A DNA stretch of 64,000 nucleotides, taken from positions 912,082 through 976,081 of the forward strand of contig NZ_JAPVBL010000001.1 in NCBI RefSeq assembly GCF_026967935.1. Direction: 5' to 3'. Positions 1 to 42,910 of the stretch are shown here, in pieces. Numbering within the stretch: the stretch's first letter is position 1; each line of letters starts with the position of its first letter. The stretch is from Modestobacter sp. VKM Ac-2982. Lineage in GTDB: Bacteria; Actinomycetota; Actinomycetes; Mycobacteriales; Geodermatophilaceae. Below the pieces are notes generated by a model, which did no database searches, was not told the DNA's origin, and saw nothing but the letters and a program-made list of their open reading frames with translations. The position numbers and the translations under genes are program-made.

Positions 1-252
1 GGCGACGCCGCCGATCACCCTGTCGGTGCGGCTGCGCCGCAGCGGCGGCCGGGCGACCGAGCCCGGTGGAGGAGGAGGCGGCCAGGAGCCCGGGGGAGGG
101 GGAGGCGGCCAGGAGCCCGGGGGAGGGGGAGGCGGCCAGGAGCCCGGGGGAGGGGGAGGCGGCCAGGAGCCCGGGGGAGGGGGAGGCGGCCAGGAGCCCG
201 GCGGCTGCTCGGCCGCCGGGGGCGGGGTGGAGGGAGGGACTGCTGAGGTCAT
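1..252 (-). CDS. PspC domain protein, N-terminal part only (runs off the window)
   Basis: Read on the minus strand from an ATG at 252, the first 84 codons are open to the window edge. After about 18 residues come five copies of the 9-residue unit GSWPPPPPP, then ARPPLRRSRTDRVIGGVA, the usual beginning of a PspC domain (phage-shock-protein C type, a membrane-associated stress domain). The reading frame explains the repeat, whereas the plus-strand frames over it give only Gly/Glu-rich strings. It is divergent from a PspC-containing histidine kinase, a common actinobacterial pairing. The start is provisional: no good Shine-Dalgarno sequence sits before it. The rest of the protein is outside the window, so membrane topology cannot be judged. 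Confidence 0.75.
   Translation of the reverse strand, partial: MTSAVPPSTPPPAAEQPPGSWPPPPPPGSWPPPPPPGSWPPPPPPGSWPPPPPPGSWPPPPPPGSVARPPLRRSRTDRVIGGVA
64..198 (-). repeat. Five tandem 27-bp repeats encoding GSWPPPPPP
   Basis: Five head-to-tail 27-bp units, nearly identical at the DNA level (the last differs at a few positions), encode a Pro-rich N-terminal linker with one Trp per unit in the PspC protein. The unit length is a multiple of three, so copy-number changes would keep the frame. Confidence 0.9.
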
Positions 253-3071: not shown

Positions 3072-3077
3072 AGCCTA
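3072..3077 (-). promoter_or_regulatory. Putative -10 box TAGGCT (leaderless promoter)
   Basis: Minus-strand TAGGCT, 7 nt before GTG 3064. Its TAG is also the stop codon of the upstream sigma-factor gene, so the box would be an internal promoter embedded in the end of that gene. Confidence 0.5.
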
Positions 3078-3989
3078 GGTCGCGGCGCGCGGGTGTCCGG
3101 CCAGGCCCCGCAGCTTGTCGGGGTTGCGGACGACCAGCACCTGTCCGATGCGCCCGTCGACGACGACCAGCGACATGGTCAGGAACGGCTCGGCACCGCT
3201 CCAGGCCACGATCGCCGCAGCGCCGTTGATCTCCACCACCTCGATCCGAAGGTCGGGCACGTCCGTGGCCTGGGCGGCGATCGCGACCAGGAACCGGGTG
3301 ACCCTCTCCGCGCCGGTGATCGGCCGCAGCGCCGCCTTCGCCTTGCCGCCGCCGTCGCTGACCAGCACCACGTCGGGCGCCAGCGCCGCCAGCAGCGCCT
3401 CGACGTCACCGCCTGCGCAGGCAGCCAGGAAGCGGTCGGTCACCTCCCGCTGGGCACGGCGGTCGGTGTCGAACCGGGGGCGGCGGGCTTGGACGTGTTC
3501 CCGTGCCCGGTGCGCCATCTGCCGGACTGCGGACTCGCTGCGGCCCAGCGCTGCTGCGACCTCGGCCACCGGCAGGGCGAAGACCTCGCGGAGCACGAAG
3601 ACCGCACGCTCGGCGGGGGAGAGGGTCTCCAGCACTACCAGCAGGGCCAGGGACACCGCCTCCCCGGTCTCCGCGACCTCGCTCGGGTCGGCCGGGCCTG
3701 GTGCCGCGGCGACCCGGTTCTCCCCGGTGAGCAGCGGCTCGGGCAGCCACGGCCCGACGTAGCTCTCCCGCCGGGCCCGGGCGGAACGCAGCCGGTCGAG
3801 CGCCAGCCGGGTGGTGACCTGCACCAGGTAGGCCCGCGGGTCGGTGACGTCGGCCCGGTCGGCCGCCGACCAGCGCAGCCAGGCGTCCTGCACGGCATCC
3901 TCGGCCTCGGCCACGCTGCCCAGCAACTGGTAGGCGACGGAGAAGAGCAGCCGGCGGTGGCCGGTGAACAGGTCGGCGGCGGCGGTCAC
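3075..3989 (-). CDS. sigJ: ECF41-type RNA polymerase sigma factor (SigJ-like)
   Basis: Extracytoplasmic-function sigma factor, 304 residues, longer than a plain ECF sigma because of a SnoaL/NTF2-like C-terminal extension. Sigma-2 region: FSVAYQLLGSVAEAEDAVQDAWLRW; sigma-4 region: LSPAERAVFVLREVFALPVAEVA with helix-turn-helix SESAVRQMAHRAREH. The hallmark ECF41 motifs are all present: WLPEPLL in the linker, DGGGK in the extension and NPDKL near the C-terminus. In this group the extension itself controls activity, without a classic anti-sigma factor. The GTG start at 3989 overlaps the stop of the upstream carboxymuconolactone-decarboxylase-like gene (GTGA), the standard ECF41 partner. That pairing and the promoter upstream of the partner make the assignment firm. 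Confidence 0.93.
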   Translation of the reverse strand: MTAAADLFTGHRRLLFSVAYQLLGSVAEAEDAVQDAWLRWSAADRADVTDPRAYLVQVTTRLALDRLRSARARRESYVGPWLPEPLLTGENRVAAAPGPADPSEVAETGEAVSLALLVVLETLSPAERAVFVLREVFALPVAEVAAALGRSESAVRQMAHRAREHVQARRPRFDTDRRAQREVTDRFLAACAGGDVEALLAALAPDVVLVSDGGGKAKAALRPITGAERVTRFLVAIAAQATDVPDLRIEVVEINGAAAIVAWSGAEPFLTMSLVVVDGRIGQVLVVRNPDKLRGLAGHPRAAT

Positions 3990-4549
3990 CGGCCCGGCAC
4001 CTCGCACCGGTCCCGGAAGCCCTGACTGGTCAGCCCGAGGGCGGCGTTGGTCCGGGAGCGGGAGTTCTCCACGGAGATCATCATGGTGAGCTCCACCAGT
4101 TGGGCGTCGTCCAGGTCTCGCCGCAGGTCCGCGACCATCTCATCGGTCACCTGCGGTGGGGTTACCGTCATGGCCTCTGCGTAGGCCATCACCCGTCGTT
4201 CCAGGTCGCTGTACACCGGGCTGTCCCGCCACCGCGGGACGTCGCCGAGCTTGGCCGGGTCCACCCCGCGCTGGCTGCTCTCCCAGAAGCCGAAGTCCAG
4301 GCACCAGGCACAGCCGATGGTGGTCGCCGAGGACATCACTGCCAGCGCCTTGAGCGTCGGGTCCAGCCGGCGCCACCGGGCCACGCTCTTCTCGAAGCGG
4401 ACCTGGCTGAGCAGCACGCGAGGGTGGTGCGCCATCGCCGCGCCCGGGTCGAGCACCGCCCCATAGGTACGGCGGGACCACCACTCCGCGGCCCGGGTCA
4501 GCAGGGTGCGGGGCGGGTCGAGCGAGATGCGGGCGGTGTCGGTGGTCAT
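3986..4549 (-). CDS. Carboxymuconolactone decarboxylase/AhpD-like protein, ECF41 partner
   Basis: 187-residue all-helical protein with a CxxC-type redox motif, SSATTIGCAWCLDFG, followed by a conserved acidic/His-like segment typical of the AhpD/CMD fold. Genes of this type (carboxymuconolactone decarboxylase, oxidoreductase or epimerase) almost always accompany ECF41 sigma factors and are their main targets. The start ATG 4549 has a Shine-Dalgarno sequence GGAGAGGA 8-9 nt upstream. The longer reading frame up to 4618 would run into the promoter and is rejected. The CxxC suggests a peroxide- or thiol-linked redox role, but the substrate is unknown. Confidence 0.88.
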   Translation of the reverse strand: MTTDTARISLDPPRTLLTRAAEWWSRRTYGAVLDPGAAMAHHPRVLLSQVRFEKSVARWRRLDPTLKALAVMSSATTIGCAWCLDFGFWESSQRGVDPAKLGDVPRWRDSPVYSDLERRVMAYAEAMTVTPPQVTDEMVADLRRDLDDAQLVELTMMISVENSRSRTNAALGLTSQGFRDRCEVPGR

Positions 4550-4584
4550 GTTCGTCGTCCTCTCCGTCGGCTGGTGCCCATGGA

Positions 4585-4611
4585 GACGGGACGGCGGCCC
4601 TGGACGTGACA
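4585..4611 (-). promoter_or_regulatory. ECF41 promoter, TGTCACG-N16-CGTC
   Basis: On the minus strand the -35 element TGTCACG (4611-4605) and the -10 element CGTC (4588-4585) are separated by exactly 16 nt. The published ECF41 consensus is TGTCACA-N16-CGTC. It lies about 35 nt before the start of the CMD-like gene, so the sigma factor probably drives its own operon. Confidence 0.85.
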
Positions 4612-4652
4612 TCCGCACGCGGCCGCACCAGGGCCGGCCGAGGAGGACGGCG

Positions 4653-4970
4653 TCAGAGCCGGCCGCGGCCCTGGCGCAGCAGCATCATCCCGAGCGTCGA
4701 GCCGTCCGGGCCGAGGGCGTCGCGGAAGCGGGAGAGCACCCGCTGCTCGCGGGACAGCGACAGCCGCATGCCACCACTCGCGGTGCGCAGCGAGCCGATC
4801 TCCTGCGAGATGGCCAGCCGGCGCCGGACGAGCGCGATGATCTCGGCGTCGCAGGCGTCGATCTCCCCGCGCAGCGCGTCGATCCGCGCCGCGGGGTCCG
4901 TCGCGGTGCCGGCGGCCGAGCTGCCGGTGCTGGGGGAGAGGGCGGTGCTGGTGGAGAGCGCGGTGCTCAT
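4653..4970 (-). CDS. aroQ: Chorismate mutase, AroQ-delta type
   Basis: Converts chorismate to prephenate, the first step toward Phe and Tyr. The 105-residue protein has an N-terminal Ser/Thr/Ala tail, then a chorismate mutase type II domain: RIDALRGEIDACDAEIIALVRRRLAIS, REQRVLSRFRDALGPDGSTLG and a C-terminal MLLRQGRGRL. The ending closely resembles Mycobacterium tuberculosis Rv0948c (LGRGRL), whose gene also lies beside uvrD1; that family is activated by complex formation with DAHP synthase. Start ATG 4970 is set by GGAGG 7 nt upstream. A long leader with a Phe-Tyr-Tyr peptide and an intrinsic terminator precedes it (see separate entries), pointing to attenuation. Confidence 0.92.
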   Translation of the reverse strand: MSTALSTSTALSPSTGSSAAGTATDPAARIDALRGEIDACDAEIIALVRRRLAISQEIGSLRTASGGMRLSLSREQRVLSRFRDALGPDGSTLGMMLLRQGRGRL

Positions 4971-5014
4971 CGGTTCCTCCGGGGTGCAGGAGGCCGTCGG
5001 GACCCCGGAGACGG

Positions 5015-5046
5015 AAAAACGCCCCGGGGCCGTGGGCCCGGGGCGT
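5015..5046 (-). terminator. Intrinsic terminator in the aroQ leader (attenuator)
   Basis: On the minus strand ACGCCCCGGG (5046-5037) pairs perfectly with CCCGGGGCGT (5028-5019) across an 8-nt loop and is followed by a run of T (5019-5015). It stands between the leader reading frame and the aroQ ribosome binding site, so it would stop transcription before the gene unless relieved. Confidence 0.85.
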
Positions 5047-5062
5047 CGTGTGCGGTGGCGGT

Positions 5063-5125
5063 TCAGCCAGCCGAGACGGACACCGGAACCCGGTGGCCGT
5101 AGTAAAACTCTCGGGGGCTGAGCAC
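5063..5125 (-). CDS. Putative 20-residue leader peptide with Phe-Tyr-Tyr (aroQ attenuation)
   Basis: A 20-codon frame from GTG 5125 to TGA 5063 reads VLSPREFYYGHRV... then stops. It contains TTT TAC TAC at 5107-5099; TTT is a very rare codon in DNA this GC-rich. A CACACT box 7 nt before the GTG matches the leaderless promoters seen elsewhere in the window, so the mRNA may begin at this start codon. A small hairpin (CACCGG/CCGGTG, 5095-5081) begins right after the Tyr codons, and the terminator follows the stop. The layout is that of an amino-acid attenuator sensing charged tRNA-Phe/Tyr, appropriate for chorismate mutase. Translation is inferred, not shown. Confidence 0.7.
   Translation of the reverse strand: MLSPREFYYGHRVPVSVSAG
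5081..5095 (-). promoter_or_regulatory. Small hairpin directly after the Phe-Tyr-Tyr codons
   Basis: CACCGG-GTT-CCGGTG on the minus strand, a perfect 6-bp stem with a 3-nt loop, beginning two codons after the Tyr codons of the leader peptide. A ribosome stalled there would cover it, so it is a candidate switch element of the attenuator. Confidence 0.55.
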
Positions 5126-5132
5126 GTCCAGA

Positions 5133-5138
5133 AGTGTG
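5133..5138 (-). promoter_or_regulatory. Putative -10 box CACACT for the aroQ leader transcript
   Basis: Minus-strand CACACT, 7 nt before the GTG of the leader peptide; same spacing as other YANNNT boxes in this window. Confidence 0.45.
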
Positions 5139-5230: not shown

Positions 5231-7522
5231 ATGAGCAGCCCCCAGCACACCCTCCCCGGCACCGCCGCGCTCCCCCGGCACACCTCCGGCCAGACCGGCC
5301 GCGAGCTGGACCGGATGCTCGCCGGCCTGAACGGCCCGCAGCGCGAGGCCACGATCCACGAGGGCAGCCCGCTGCTCATCGTCGCCGGGGCCGGCTCGGG
5401 CAAGACGCGGGTGCTCACCCACCGGATCGCCTACCTGCTCGGCGCCCGCGGCGTGCAGCCCGGCGAGATCATGGCGATCACCTTCACCAACAAGGCCGCC
5501 GGGGAGATGAAGGAGCGCGTCGCCGCGCTGGTCGGCCCACGGGCCCGGGCCATGTGGGTGTCCACGTTCCACTCGATGTGCGTGCGCATCCTGCGGGCCG
5601 AGGCCGGCAAGCTCGGCATGAAGAGCTCGTTCACCATCTACGACCAGGGCGACTCCGTCCGGCTGATGACGATGGTCGCCCGCGACCTGGATCTCGACGC
5701 CAAGCGGTATCCCGGCCGCAGCCTGGCCAACCAGGTGTCGAACCTGAAGAACGAGCTGGTCGACGAGGAGTCCTACGCCCCGCAGACGGCACCGGAGAAG
5801 GTGCTGAAGGAGGCGTACACCCTCTACCAGCGGCGGTTGCGCGAGGCGCACGCCATGGACTTCGACGACCTGATCATGACCACGGTGCACCTGCTCCAGG
5901 CCTTCCCCGATGTGGCCGAGCACTACCGCCGCCGGTTCCGGCACGTGCTGGTCGACGAGTACCAGGACACCAACCACGCCCAGTACGTGCTGGTCCGCGA
6001 GCTGGTCGGCACGCACGGCGGCCCGGTGCCGCCGGCCGAGCTGTGCGTCGTCGGCGATGCCGACCAGTCGATCTACGCCTTCCGCGGCGCGACGATCCGC
6101 AACATCGACGAGTTCGAGCGCGACTACCCCGACGCCACCACGATCGTGCTGGAGCAGAACTACCGCTCCACCCAGCGCATCCTGCGCGCGGCCAACCAGG
6201 TGATCGCCCGCAACACCGCCCGCCGGCCGAAGAACCTGTGGTCCGACGCCGGTGACGGCGAGCTGATCGAGGGCTACGTCGCCGACAACGAGCACGACGA
6301 GGCCGCCTGGGTCGCCGAGCAGATCGACGCGCTCACCGACGAGGGCAAGGCCCGGCCGGCCGACATCGCGATCTTCTACCGCACCAACAACGCCTCCCGC
6401 GTCTTCGAGGAGGTGTTCATCCGGGTCGGCATGCCCTACAAGGTTGTCGGCGGGGTGCGCTTCTACGAGCGGCGGGAGGTCCGGGACGCGGTCGCCTACC
6501 TGAAGGTGGTCGCCAACCCGGCCGACGTGGTGAGCCTGCGGCGGGTGCTGAACACGCCCAAGCGTGGGATCGGCGAGCGGGCCGAAGCGTGCGTCGAGCG
6601 GTTCGCCGACCGTGAGCGGATCCCGTTCGCCAGCGCGCTGCGCCGGTGCTCGGAGGTCGGTGACCTGGCCACCCGGTCGCTCAAGGCGATCCAGGAGTTC
6701 GTCGCCCTGCTGGAGGAGTTCGAGCAGCTGGTCGAGACCGGGTCGGGTCCGGCGGCCCTGCTGGAGAGCGTCCTGGACCGCACCGGCTACCTGGCCGAGC
6801 TCGAGGCCAGCACCGACCCCCAGGACGAGGGGCGGGTCGACAACCTCAACGAGCTGATCTCGGTGGCCGCCGAGTTCGAGGCTGCCAACCCCGGGGGCAC
6901 GGTCACCGAGTTCCTCGAGCAGGTCTCACTCGTCGCCGACGCCGACCAGATCCCGGTCAGCGGCGACGAGGCCGGCGTGGTGACCCTGATGACCCTGCAC
7001 ACCGCCAAGGGCCTGGAGTTCCCGGTGGTCTTCCTCACCGGCCTGGAGGACGGCGTCTTCCCGCACCTGCGGGCCCTCGGTGACCCGCGGGAACTGGAGG
7101 AGGAGCGCCGGCTGGCCTACGTGGGCATCACCCGGGCGCGCCAGCGGCTGTTCCTCTCCCGGGCCACCGTGCGCACCAACTGGGGGCAGCCGGCCTACAA
7201 CCCGCCGTCCCGGTTCCTCGACGAGCTGCCGGCCGACGCCGTCCACTGGGAGCGGCTGGAGCCGGCCCCCAGCAAGCCGATGAGCTCCGCGCAGGCGCGG
7301 GTCGCCTCGACCGGCCTGTCGACCGGGGGCCTCCGCGGTGGTGCGGGCAACCGGGCGGTGATCAGCGTCGACGTCGGCGACCGGGTCAGCCACGATGCTT
7401 TCGGGCTCGGCACGGTGGTCGAGATCAACGGCGCCGGCGACAAGGCGCAGGCCACGGTCGATTTCGGCTCCGGCGGCACCAAGCGCCTCGTGCTCCGCTA
7501 TGCGCCCCTCGTCAAGTTGTAG
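5231..7522 (+). CDS. pcrA: ATP-dependent DNA helicase PcrA/UvrD1
   Basis: Superfamily 1A 3'-5' DNA helicase, 763 residues, acting in repair and removal of proteins from DNA. Walker A GAGSGKT is at residues 53-59. Further motifs are Ia AITFTNKAAGEMKER, II VDEYQDTN, III GDADQSIYAFRGA, IV LEQNYRS, V LMTLHTAKGLEFPVVF and VI RRLAYVGITRARQRL. The C-terminal roughly 50 residues (VGDRVSHDAFGLGTVVEI...) form a Tudor-like domain that in PcrA/UvrD binds RNA polymerase. Full family length. The neighbours (chorismate mutase on one side, M23 peptidase on the other) match mycobacterial uvrD1 and streptomycete pcrA loci. The stop codon lies inside the first unit of a short tandem repeat. Confidence 0.97.
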   Translation: MSSPQHTLPGTAALPRHTSGQTGRELDRMLAGLNGPQREATIHEGSPLLIVAGAGSGKTRVLTHRIAYLLGARGVQPGEIMAITFTNKAAGEMKERVAALVGPRARAMWVSTFHSMCVRILRAEAGKLGMKSSFTIYDQGDSVRLMTMVARDLDLDAKRYPGRSLANQVSNLKNELVDEESYAPQTAPEKVLKEAYTLYQRRLREAHAMDFDDLIMTTVHLLQAFPDVAEHYRRRFRHVLVDEYQDTNHAQYVLVRELVGTHGGPVPPAELCVVGDADQSIYAFRGATIRNIDEFERDYPDATTIVLEQNYRSTQRILRAANQVIARNTARRPKNLWSDAGDGELIEGYVADNEHDEAAWVAEQIDALTDEGKARPADIAIFYRTNNASRVFEEVFIRVGMPYKVVGGVRFYERREVRDAVAYLKVVANPADVVSLRRVLNTPKRGIGERAEACVERFADRERIPFASALRRCSEVGDLATRSLKAIQEFVALLEEFEQLVETGSGPAALLESVLDRTGYLAELEASTDPQDEGRVDNLNELISVAAEFEAANPGGTVTEFLEQVSLVADADQIPVSGDEAGVVTLMTLHTAKGLEFPVVFLTGLEDGVFPHLRALGDPRELEEERRLAYVGITRARQRLFLSRATVRTNWGQPAYNPPSRFLDELPADAVHWERLEPAPSKPMSSAQARVASTGLSTGGLRGGAGNRAVISVDVGDRVSHDAFGLGTVVEINGAGDKAQATVDFGSGGTKRLVLRYAPLVKL

Positions 7523-41269: not shown

Positions 41270-42910
41270 TTGTCCTCGTTCGACTCTGTCGACGTCCAGA
41301 ACGCCCCCGCACTGCAGGACGCCGCGGCTGACGCCGCCGTCCTCGACACGCCCCCCACCGAGGCCCCCGTGGCCGAGGCGGCGCCCGAGCCCACCGGCCC
41401 GACCTTCGCCGAGCTGGGCCTGCCCCAGCCGCTGGTCACCGCGCTGGAGCGCAAGGGCATCCGTCACCCCTTCGCCATCCAGACCTCCGCCCTGCCGGAC
41501 GCCCTCGCCGGGCGCGACGTGCTCGGCAAGGCCGCCACCGGCTCGGGCAAGACGCTGGCCTTCGGCCTGCCGCTGCTGGCCCGGCTCGGTGCCGAGCCCG
41601 GTCAGGGTCGCCGCGCACCGCGTGGCCTGATCCTGGTGCCGACCCGCGAGCTGGCCCAGCAGGTGCACGACAACCTGGCTCCGCTGGGGCAGTCCAACGG
41701 CGTCCAGCTGGCCGCCGTCTACGGCGGTGCCTCGATGTACCGCCAGATCCAGCAGCTGCGTCGCGGTGTCGACGTGCTGATCGCCACCCCCGGGCGGCTC
41801 CAGGACCTGATCAACCAGGGCGAGGCCACCCTCGCCGAGGTGATCGTCTCCGTCATCGACGAGGCCGACTTCATGTCCGACCTCGGCTTCCTGCCGGTGG
41901 TCAAGGAACTGCTCGACCAGACCCGCCCCGACGGCCAGCGGCTGCTCTTCTCGGCCACGCTGGACGGCGAGGTCGACACCCTGGTGCGCCGCTACCTCAA
42001 GGACCCGGCCCGCCACGAGGTCGCCAAGGCCGAGGACAGCGGTCCGCAGGCCGAGCACCTGGCCTACAGCGTGTCCTTCCCGGACAAGCTGAAGATCGCC
42101 GAGGCGATGGCCGCCCGTCCGGGCCGGATCATCATCTTCGTGCGCACCCAGCACGGTGCCGACCGGCTGGCCGGCAACCTGCAGCAGGTCGGCATCGCGG
42201 CCGAGCCCATCCACGGTGGGCTCCCGCAGGCGGCCCGCCGCCGTGCGCTGGAGGCGTTCACCGACGCCCGCAGCCCGGTGCTGGTGGCCACCGACGTCGC
42301 CGCGCGTGGCATCCACGTCGACGACGTGTCGCTGGTCCTGCACTACGACCCGCCGGCAGACCACAAGACCTACCTGCACCGTTCCGGCCGCACCGCGCGC
42401 GCCGGTGCCGCGGGCGTCGTGGTCTCGCTGCTCCTGCCGGACCAGGTGGGCCAGGCCAAGCGCCGGTTCCGCCAGGCCAAGCTCGACCCGCAGGTGTCGC
42501 GGATCCGCCCGGGCGACGCCCCGATCACGGACCTCGTGGCCGGTGGCACGTTCGTCGAGCCGATCGTCCGCCCGGTGCGCGAGTCGCGCCGTCCGGCCGG
42601 CGGTTCCGGTGGGCGCCGTCCCTCCGGGGAGCGTCCGGGTGGCTACCGCGGTGGCCCGCGCCGTCCCTCCGGCGACCGCGAGCGCACGTACGGAGACCGC
42701 CCCTCGGGCGAGCGCTCCTACGGCGATCGGGATCGCAGCGCAGCTGGCCGTCCCTCCGGCGACCGCGACCGCTCGTACGGTGACCGCCCCTCGGGCGAGC
42801 GCTCCTACGGCGATCGGGATCGTTCCGGCGGCGGCGAGCGGCGCACCGGTGGCTACCGTGGCTCCAGCGACGGGCAGCGCCCCGGCGCCCGCCCGGCCCG
42901 CTCCTACTGA
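41270..42910 (+). CDS. DEAD-box ATP-dependent RNA helicase
   Basis: About 546 residues. RNA unwinding in ribosome assembly or mRNA turnover. Q motif (FAELGLPQPLVTALERKGIRHPFAIQ), Walker A KAATGSGKT, PTRELAQQ, TPGRLQDL, DEAD-like motif written DEADFM, SAT (LLFSATLDG), then helicase C with FVRTQHGADRLAG, ATDVAARGIHVDDVSLVLHYD and HRSGRTARAG. The C-terminal roughly 120 residues are Arg/Gly/Ser/Asp-rich, with two 29-residue tandem repeats. TTG 41270 is chosen because GGAG is 7 nt upstream; the frame extends to 41105, but that portion looks like leader. Two strong hairpins end the gene. Confidence 0.92.
   Translation: MSSFDSVDVQNAPALQDAAADAAVLDTPPTEAPVAEAAPEPTGPTFAELGLPQPLVTALERKGIRHPFAIQTSALPDALAGRDVLGKAATGSGKTLAFGLPLLARLGAEPGQGRRAPRGLILVPTRELAQQVHDNLAPLGQSNGVQLAAVYGGASMYRQIQQLRRGVDVLIATPGRLQDLINQGEATLAEVIVSVIDEADFMSDLGFLPVVKELLDQTRPDGQRLLFSATLDGEVDTLVRRYLKDPARHEVAKAEDSGPQAEHLAYSVSFPDKLKIAEAMAARPGRIIIFVRTQHGADRLAGNLQQVGIAAEPIHGGLPQAARRRALEAFTDARSPVLVATDVAARGIHVDDVSLVLHYDPPADHKTYLHRSGRTARAGAAGVVVSLLLPDQVGQAKRRFRQAKLDPQVSRIRPGDAPITDLVAGGTFVEPIVRPVRESRRPAGGSGGRRPSGERPGGYRGGPRRPSGDRERTYGDRPSGERSYGDRDRSAAGRPSGDRDRSYGDRPSGERSYGDRDRSGGGERRTGGYRGSSDGQRPGARPARSY
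42662..42835 (+). repeat. Two tandem 87-bp repeats in the helicase tail
   Basis: Period 87 bp (29 codons): each copy encodes RPSGDR-R-YGDRPSGERSYGDRDRS with slight variation. The DNA is nearly identical over most of the unit, so the duplication is recent or maintained. Confidence 0.85.

What the first reader, a model, noticed from the sequence alone, without database searches (positions are those of the whole stretch)
5015..5138. Phe-Tyr-Tyr leader peptide plus terminator: an attenuator for chorismate mutase
Seen: upstream of aroQ on the minus strand a 20-codon frame carries TTT TAC TAC, with TTT rare in such DNA. A small hairpin starts just after these codons, then come a stop codon, a perfect 10-bp stem with a T-run, and finally GGAGG-ATG of aroQ. 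A -10-like box 7 nt before the leader GTG suggests the mRNA begins at the leader start. Known: classic attenuation couples ribosome stalling at scarce amino-acid codons to termination; chorismate mutase is the branch to Phe and Tyr. Inference: starvation for Phe/Tyr turns aroQ on. I know of trp, ilv and leu leaders in actinobacteria, but I do not recall one described for an AroQ-delta chorismate mutase.
Basis: partly seen in the sequence, partly recalled or inferred. Interest (0 to 1): 0.85.

Follow-up and report, generated by a model that had tools for sequence, protein, structure and literature searches.

The report
Phe/Tyr attenuator of chorismate mutase
Just before a gene that starts the making of two amino acids, phenylalanine and tyrosine, lies a tiny gene and an RNA switch that most likely turn the big gene on only when those two amino acids run short; the same switch recurs in many actinobacteria, where we found no earlier description of it.

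Summary
On the minus strand, between a -10-like box and aroQ (monofunctional chorismate mutase), lies a 20-codon leader (GTG 5125, TGA 5063) with TTT TAC TAC, a hairpin whose 5' arm begins in the last Tyr codon, and a terminator hairpin (-25.8 kcal/mol). An F-(x)-Y leader precedes chorismate mutase in 108 of 108 family loci, 80 of 80 named loci, and 55 of the 69 next-best class loci; shuffles give 5 of 1440. TTT, absent from 72 Phe codons nearby, is in 220 of 224 leaders. Hairpin letters differ between clades but still pair. With a ribosome stalled at Phe or Tyr, an antiterminator is predicted; at the stop codon the footprint leaves almost no room for it. Best reading: ribosome-mediated transcription attenuation by Phe/Tyr supply, probably on a leaderless leader mRNA. 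It works like E. coli pheL and C. glutamicum aroR. Rfam has no match, a 2005 actinobacterial survey reported no Phe/Tyr structure, and ten library searches showed no report for this gene (three relevant papers unread). In another class a similar leader precedes DAHP synthase. No experiment was possible: termination, translation and the Phe/Tyr response are inferred.

The parts
5133..5138 (-). -10-like box CACACT, 7 nt before the leader start; mRNA would begin at or next to the leader GTG (leaderless)
   Evidence: a very loosely defined -10-like box lies just upstream of an in-frame start in 220 of 224 relatives (no shuffled control for this item)
5063..5125 (-). leader ORF, GTG to TGA, 20 codons, MLSPREFYYGHRVPVSVSAG
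   Evidence: F-(x)-Y leaders in 108 of 108 family loci
5099..5107 (-). control codons TTT TAC TAC (Phe Tyr Tyr)
   Evidence: an F-(x)-Y leader in 224 of 238 upstream regions; TTT in the motif or the two codons before it in 220 of these 224; TTT 0 of 72 in nearby ORFs
5076..5100 (-). hairpin 1: ACGG-C-CACCGG / loop GTT / CCGGTG-T-CCGT, inside the leader ORF
   Evidence: compensatory changes between clades
5079..5086 (-). left arm of the predicted antiterminator (CCGGTGTC), shared with the 3' arm of hairpin 1
5038..5047 (-). right arm of the predicted antiterminator (GACGCC, bulge CC, GG), shared with the 5' arm of the terminator
5015..5047 (-). intrinsic terminator: stem 5046-5037 / 5028-5019 and T-run
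   Evidence: -25.8 kcal/mol, z -3.56; not flagged by the pattern scan
4976..4980 (-). Shine-Dalgarno GGAGG of aroQ
4653..4970 (-). aroQ, monofunctional chorismate mutase type II, 105 aa
   Evidence: PF01817, E 6.2e-10

Best explanation
A ribosome-mediated (trp-type) transcription attenuator that senses charged Phe- and Tyr-tRNA and controls aroQ. The mRNA most likely starts at the leader GTG. Without translation, hairpin 1 forms, blocks the antiterminator, and transcription ends before aroQ. With enough Phe and Tyr, the ribosome runs to the stop codon and its footprint covers most of the RNA between leader and terminator, so the terminator forms. When Phe or Tyr is short, the ribosome waits at TTT or TAC; since hairpin 1 starts in the last Tyr codon it cannot form, the antiterminator pairs with the 5' arm of the terminator, and RNA polymerase reads into aroQ. 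Shown: anatomy, conservation, covariation of hairpin 1, predicted mutually exclusive folds. Inferred: start of the mRNA, translation, termination, stalling, and the response to Phe/Tyr.
For: Leader, codons, hairpin and terminator read directly. An F-(x)-Y leader before chorismate mutase in 108 of 108 family loci, 80 of 80 named loci (the best 80 of 116 found) and 55 of the 69 next-best loci of the class sample. Chance control 5 of 1440. TTT in 220 of 224 leaders, 0 of 72 Phe codons in window ORFs. The stop codon lies 12 codons after the Tyr codon in 105 of 105 and 66 of 66 leaders of two families, though the part before the motif varies in length. Hairpin 1 starts within 0-3 nt of the first base of the Tyr codon in 88 of 89 distinct sequences, folded from that codon on. 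Over 51 sequences, 49 of them from four clades, it shows 57 double-change cells against 21.3 shuffled, 0 of 500 shuffles as high. Fold model: probability that the terminator 5' arm pairs upstream is, in the home family (n 89), 0.40 free, 0.80 stalled at Phe, 0.65 at Tyr, 0.03 at the stop codon; Tyr exceeds stop by more than 0.1 in 186 of 192 sequences (recounted). pcrA is divergent, so the terminator serves no upstream gene. In the same genome no F/Y leader was seen before either DAHP synthase or prephenate dehydratase.
Against: No experiment. The low value at the stop codon is largely geometry: the assumed footprint leaves a median of only 4 nt (home family), 1, 5 and 10 nt (f2, f3, f21) free before the terminator arm, so it is not an independent test. 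Stalling beats the free RNA by more than 0.1 in only 132 of 192 (Tyr) and 156 of 192 (Phe). GC-rich spacers pair easily: shuffled spacers give 0.53 in the home family; the real value is above the shuffle mean in 181 of 192, related sequences and not independent. At equilibrium the terminator wins even in the stalled state, so the switch depends on folding order. For f20 and f16 the model mostly fails (stalled exceeds stop in 0 of 2 and 1 of 3) and terminators are weak. Mycobacteria-like tails are only loosely T-rich (4-6 T in 10 nt), and their terminator arms were set by a text pattern. Hairpin 1: two of the covariation measures are no better than shuffles (pairs with double change 4 against 3.7, pair types 12 against 11.6). 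Antiterminator: those two measures are reached by 65 of 500 shuffles, though cells paired, double-change cells and covariation score by 0 of 500. The pattern scan flagged neither promoter nor terminator.
Confidence: 0.87

Rival explanations
1. The leader senses slow translation in general (for example ribosome-targeting antibiotics, as the whiB7 uORF does), and Phe/Tyr codons are only one way to stall.
For: Such uORF control exists in actinobacteria (PMC13236596, passages). The geometry (hairpin inside the leader, terminator before the gene) would serve equally.
Against: Phe and Tyr stay while the codon between them varies (Tyr, Ser, Pro, Ala, Thr or none), the downstream gene makes prephenate for Phe and Tyr, and outside the class a similar leader precedes DAHP synthase.
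Confidence: 0.06
2. The conserved leader peptide acts as a sequence (arrest peptide or trans-acting small protein), not through charged tRNA.
For: The peptide core Phe-x-Tyr-Gly is conserved.
Against: The conserved stretch after Tyr is the hairpin: L008 changes two residues (His to Arg, Val to Ala) by paired DNA changes that keep the stem; between clades the residues change with the stem, and family f16 has YALTGVR in place of YGHRVPV.
Confidence: 0.03
3. A constitutive premature terminator: the hairpins only lower expression and sense nothing.
For: No measurement of regulation exists; the terminator is the most stable fold in the free and in both stalled states.
Against: A pure terminator needs no leader frame, rare TTT, fixed Tyr-to-stop distance or hairpin anchored on the Tyr codon.
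Confidence: 0.03
4. Chance occurrence in GC-rich DNA.
For: GC-rich DNA makes hairpins easily (shuffled spacers pair at 0.53).
Against: 5 of 1440 shuffles and 1 of 224 reverse complements meet the leader rule, against 224 of 238 real regions.
Confidence: 0.01

Closest known systems
C. glutamicum aroR leader upstream of aroF (DAHP synthase), Neshat et al. 2014 (original not held; seen as passages of the review PMC11802643, and a mention in PMC3890552)
   Same: Actinobacterial Phe/Tyr leader peptide (Phe-Tyr-Phe) before an aromatic-pathway gene; attenuation by ribosome stalling.
   Different: Target is DAHP synthase, not chorismate mutase; reported to respond to Phe limitation but not to Tyr; no chorismate mutase attenuator is mentioned in the passages read.
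E. coli pheL-pheA attenuator (passage of PMC11802643; sequence details recalled)
   Same: Leader peptide and Phe-tRNA supply control a gene with chorismate mutase activity.
   Different: pheA is the bifunctional chorismate mutase-prephenate dehydratase; its leader has a normal 5' UTR and Phe control codons only (recalled). No Rfam family matches the present leader.
Actinobacterial trp, ilvB, leuA, leuS, trpS, cys leaders (Seliverstov 2005, PMC1262725, passages; S. lividans list, PMC8079986, passages)
   Same: Short leader peptides, often leaderless, with control codons, some with terminators.
   Different: Other amino acids; the 2005 survey states that nothing conserved was seen before phenylalanine and tyrosine operons, and the S. 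lividans list of eight leaders has no Phe/Tyr one.
Mtb ilvB1 attenuator (PMC13236596, passages)
   Same: uORF with control codons, antiterminator/terminator exchange, in an actinobacterium.
   Different: Branched-chain amino acids; neither 'chorismate' nor 'Rv0948c' occurs in its main text.

Membership tests
Ribosome-mediated (trp-type) transcription attenuator | short leader ORF before the gene with codons of the pathway's amino acids | tested here: met
Ribosome-mediated (trp-type) transcription attenuator | hairpin overlapping the leader ORF that a ribosome waiting at the control codons would block | tested here: met
Ribosome-mediated (trp-type) transcription attenuator | antiterminator exclusive with both hairpin 1 and terminator | tested here: met
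   By fold prediction only; excess over shuffled spacers modest, families f20 and f16 mostly do not show it, covariation weak
Ribosome-mediated (trp-type) transcription attenuator | intrinsic terminator between leader and gene | tested here: met
   not flagged by the pattern scan
Ribosome-mediated (trp-type) transcription attenuator | leader translated, and read-through depends on charged tRNA | not testable with these tools
   needs reporters or ribosome profiling
Homologue of C. glutamicum aroR | common descent of the leader sequence | not tested
In four genomes of genera g14 and g16, without a chorismate mutase leader, YFWF leaders precede a type I DAHP synthase; I did not align these to the F-x-Y-G leader
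T-box or other known Rfam leader | match above a family's gathering score | tested here: not met
   0 matches in the window and in 12 loci
Nascent-chain arrest leader | peptide sequence itself conserved, beyond codons and RNA fold | tested here: inconclusive
   residues after Tyr change in step with the RNA stem, but Phe, Tyr and mostly Gly stay

The most novel reading that the evidence does not exclude
One old family of Phe/Tyr attenuators, present before the classes of Actinomycetota parted, governs entry into Phe/Tyr synthesis by ribosome stalling, and has moved between targets: chorismate mutase in the ten families of the class whose best matches I examined, DAHP synthase in another class (leader RYFFYGGDDPA and kin before PF00793 in 5 of 5 genomes examined there, all chosen because the RNA model hit them) and in some order-mates without the chorismate mutase leader. 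The exchange is not strict: one genome (G430) has both.
Probability: 0.45. Interest if true: 0.75.

Novelty: new member of a known kind. Interest (0 to 1): 0.62.

Why it matters
Chorismate mutase is the branch point to Phe and Tyr. In these bacteria I knew it (recall; for C. glutamicum also the review passage) as controlled at enzyme level through its complex with DAHP synthase. A class-wide attenuator would supply gene-level control, in antibiotic producers such as Micromonospora and probably Streptomyces, where aromatic precursors feed many products. It also gives a clean test case for attenuation on leaderless mRNA and for leader elements that change target gene while keeping their codons.

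Tried and rejected
Rfam: nothing in the window or in 12 loci. Pattern scan for promoter and terminator: nothing flagged. Other copies in the same genome: the RNA model finds only this locus convincingly (E 3.1e-33; two weak hits are its own other strand; next independent hit 0.24); both DAHP synthases and prephenate dehydratase show no F/Y leader.

The idea that chorismate mutase leader and DAHP synthase leader exclude each other was tested on small samples and holds only in part. g14 and g16 (2 of 2 each) and 1 of 3 of g17 have an aromatic leader before type I DAHP synthase and no chorismate mutase leader; the single g13 and f3 genomes tested have none at DAHP synthase. But G430 has both; G408 and G420 have only the chorismate mutase leader; G438 has a DAHP synthase leader and no chorismate mutase match; G451 shows neither; G456, G440 and G468 have no chorismate mutase match and no DAHP synthase leader; G411 has an F/Y-rich leader at chorismate mutase; G414 only a Tyr-Phe one; G415 is unclear. 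L318-L320 and L330 were not looked at. G748, hit by the model, has no PF00793 match and was not followed.

Misses in the leader count: 14 of 238: L113, L116, L120, L122, L125, L129, L130, L134 (no leader seen), L117 (Phe-Ile-Tyr leader kept, but its stop codon and the terminator are gone), L162 and L170 (weaker second matches in Streptomyces-like genomes whose best match has the leader), L172 (upstream cut by contig end), L173 and L174 (Phe/Tyr codons near, but no leader that meets the rule). In the fold model L124, L176, L177 were left out for want of a clear terminator, and identical sequences were counted once. The hairpin alignment left out families f16, f20, f34 and f24 and took at most 14 sequences a clade. 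Class matches below the best 70 were not examined. R1 hits in the order (127 of 150 genomes at E 0.01) and phylum (54 of 296 at E 0.001) include weak and partial matches; I did not check each for its downstream gene.

Papers: Neshat 2014, D'Halluin 2023 (PMC10122055) and Lopatovskaya 2010 are not held, so a mention there cannot be excluded. Ten searches listed no attenuator at an actinobacterial chorismate mutase; three listings were cut (20 of 1255, 20 of 22, 15 of 21). I opened ten papers, as passages only; the other listed papers I know by title and start of abstract.

Full report
What is there. On the minus strand between the divergent helicase gene pcrA (5231-7522, plus strand) and aroQ (4970-4653; PF01817 chorismate mutase type II, E 6.2e-10) the sequence reads CACACT, 7 nt, then a 20-codon frame GTG...TGA (5125-5063) translated MLSPREFYYGHRVPVSVSAG, then a perfect 10-bp GC-rich stem with a T-run (5046-5015), then GGAGG and the ATG of aroQ. 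The terminator folds at -25.8 kcal/mol, z -3.56. Because pcrA is divergent, the terminator ends no other gene's transcript. A crude pattern scan flagged neither promoter nor terminator.

Whose it is. Family f3 is Micromonosporaceae (its protein is 97-99 % identical to the top Micromonospora records). The labels Mycobacteriaceae for f2 and Streptomyces-like for f21 are recalled from protein and genome size, not from a record.

Conservation in the family. Chorismate mutase was found in 109 of 112 genomes; 108 loci with upstream DNA were fetched (one match lies at a contig end), and 108 of 108 carry a leader with Phe, at most one codon, then Tyr (105, three). In the 105, the codon between is Tyr 53, Ser 20, Ala 6, Pro 5 or none 21. 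TTT stands in the motif or the two codons before it in 101 of 105, although it is 0 of 72 Phe codons in eight window ORFs. The stop codon lies 12 codons after the Tyr codon in 105 of 105, while the part before the motif varies.

Conservation beyond. A protein search of named genomes kept the best 80 of 116 loci: 64 almost all Micromonosporaceae and 16 of the home family. All 80 have the leader: in Micromonospora typically VFDQRFYFYYGTGSPAAVGRA after GGCATACT, with four or five aromatic codons in a row. Among the 69 next-best loci of the class sample (296 genomes, 120 with a match), 55 meet the leader rule: mycobacteria-like genomes with for example VLSWQRRFFYGYRSAVPVGI, Streptomyces-like ones with for example MLTQTTFLFTYGNRPTGCHGRAA, and smaller families with RFFYGGRARSPLCR or RFFYALTGVRSGLGC. 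The 14 misses are itemised in Tried and rejected. Under the same rule 5 of 1440 dinucleotide shuffles and 1 of 224 reverse complements pass. The RNA model built from 47 family sequences matches 127 of 150 genomes of the order at E 0.01 or better; these hits were not all checked for their downstream gene.

The RNA. Hairpin 1 begins within 0-3 nt of the first base of the Tyr codon in 88 of 89 distinct sequences folded from that codon on; with three more bases given, several folds reach one to three nt further upstream. Its letters differ between clades yet pair: over 51 sequences, 49 of four clades, 57 cells carry changes on both sides against 21.3 in shuffles (0 of 500), and sliding the partners by 1 to 3 columns drops pairing from 87.5 % to 30-43 %; two coarser measures (pairs with double change, number of pair types) do not exceed shuffles. 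In the home family hairpin 1 and terminator together pair in 98.0 % of cells with four pairs changed on both sides, three of them in the terminator. A telling case is L008, where His and Val become Arg and Ala by two paired DNA changes that keep the stem.

The switch. With the RNA masked up to a ribosome at Phe or Tyr, and ended before the terminator's 3' arm, the window sequence folds with an antiterminator GGUGUC / GACGCC, at -28.5 or -22.8 kcal/mol. Over 192 distinct sequences, the chance that the terminator's 5' arm is held upstream is higher by more than 0.1 with the ribosome at Tyr than at the stop codon in 186, than in free RNA in 132; at Phe than in free RNA in 156. Means free, Phe, Tyr, stop: home family 0.40, 0.80, 0.65, 0.03; mycobacteria-like 0.34, 0.77, 0.82, 0.00; Micromonosporaceae 0.35, 0.69, 0.58, 0.03; Streptomyces-like 0.49, 0.87, 0.71, 0.08. 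Limits: the stop-codon value is low mainly because the assumed footprint leaves a median of 1 to 10 nt before the arm in these four clades; shuffled spacers reach 0.53 in the home family; the complete stalled RNA still prefers the terminator at equilibrium, so the model relies on the antiterminator forming first; families f20 and f16 mostly do not fit; antiterminator covariation is weak.

Scope in the cell. The RNA model finds no second convincing copy in the home genome. Type II and type I DAHP synthase and prephenate dehydratase there show no F/Y leader. Other aromatic genes were not looked at.

Other targets. In family f66 of another class, five genomes chosen because the model hit them carry the leader (MRRFFGGRYFFYGGDDPA, MKAFGGVRFFYGGWSPA and kin) and a terminator-like hairpin before a PF00793 DAHP synthase. 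Of order-mates without a chorismate mutase leader, g14 and g16 (2 of 2 each) have YFWF leaders before DAHP synthase and one of three of g17 has a YWRFF leader. In genomes that the model missed, three f49 members still have FFY leaders at chorismate mutase, and G430 has leaders at both genes. So target change is likely but not a strict exchange.

What is known. Seliverstov 2005 (passages) looked for RNA regulation of amino acid genes in Actinobacteria and states that no conserved structure was seen before phenylalanine and tyrosine operons. The S. lividans reannotation lists eight leader peptides, none for Phe or Tyr (passages). The nearest known system, C. glutamicum aroR before aroF, has Phe-Tyr-Phe and answers to Phe but not Tyr (review passage). 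E. coli pheL controls a bifunctional chorismate mutase (same review). Ten library searches listed no attenuator at an actinobacterial chorismate mutase; the library holds only openly licensed papers, and three relevant ones are not held, so 'not in print' is not proven.

Verdict. The kind is known; the member is, to my searches, new, found in each of ten families of the class whose best matches I examined, and not reported by the survey of 2005. Confidence in Phe/Tyr-dependent transcription attenuation is 0.87; it rests on comparative evidence and fold prediction alone.

Noticed in passing
L304, L305, L307, L308, L310 (family f66, another class): A Phe/Tyr leader with terminator-like hairpin stands before a type I DAHP synthase instead of chorismate mutase in all five genomes examined, which were chosen because the RNA model hit them.
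   Followed up: partly
L300, L302, L303, L309 (genera g14, g16): Leaders with YFWF (aromatic run including Trp) before type I DAHP synthase in genomes without a chorismate mutase leader; resembles the reported C. glutamicum aroR.
   Followed up: partly
L117, minus strand around 1438: Leader with Phe-Ile-Tyr and hairpin kept, but leader stop codon and terminator gone: a natural loss of the attenuator's end.
   Followed up: no
window 3075-4618, minus strand: Downstream of aroQ, after 34 nt, lie a carboxymuconolactone decarboxylase-family ORF (PF02627) and another minus-strand ORF (3075-4007) that looks like an ECF sigma factor by recall; perhaps one transcript.
   Followed up: no
window 59-201: A 27-bp unit repeated 5.3 times at 98 % match, glycine-rich in one translation.
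   Followed up: no
window 42660-42822: An 87-bp unit repeated 1.9 times at 96 % match.
   Followed up: no
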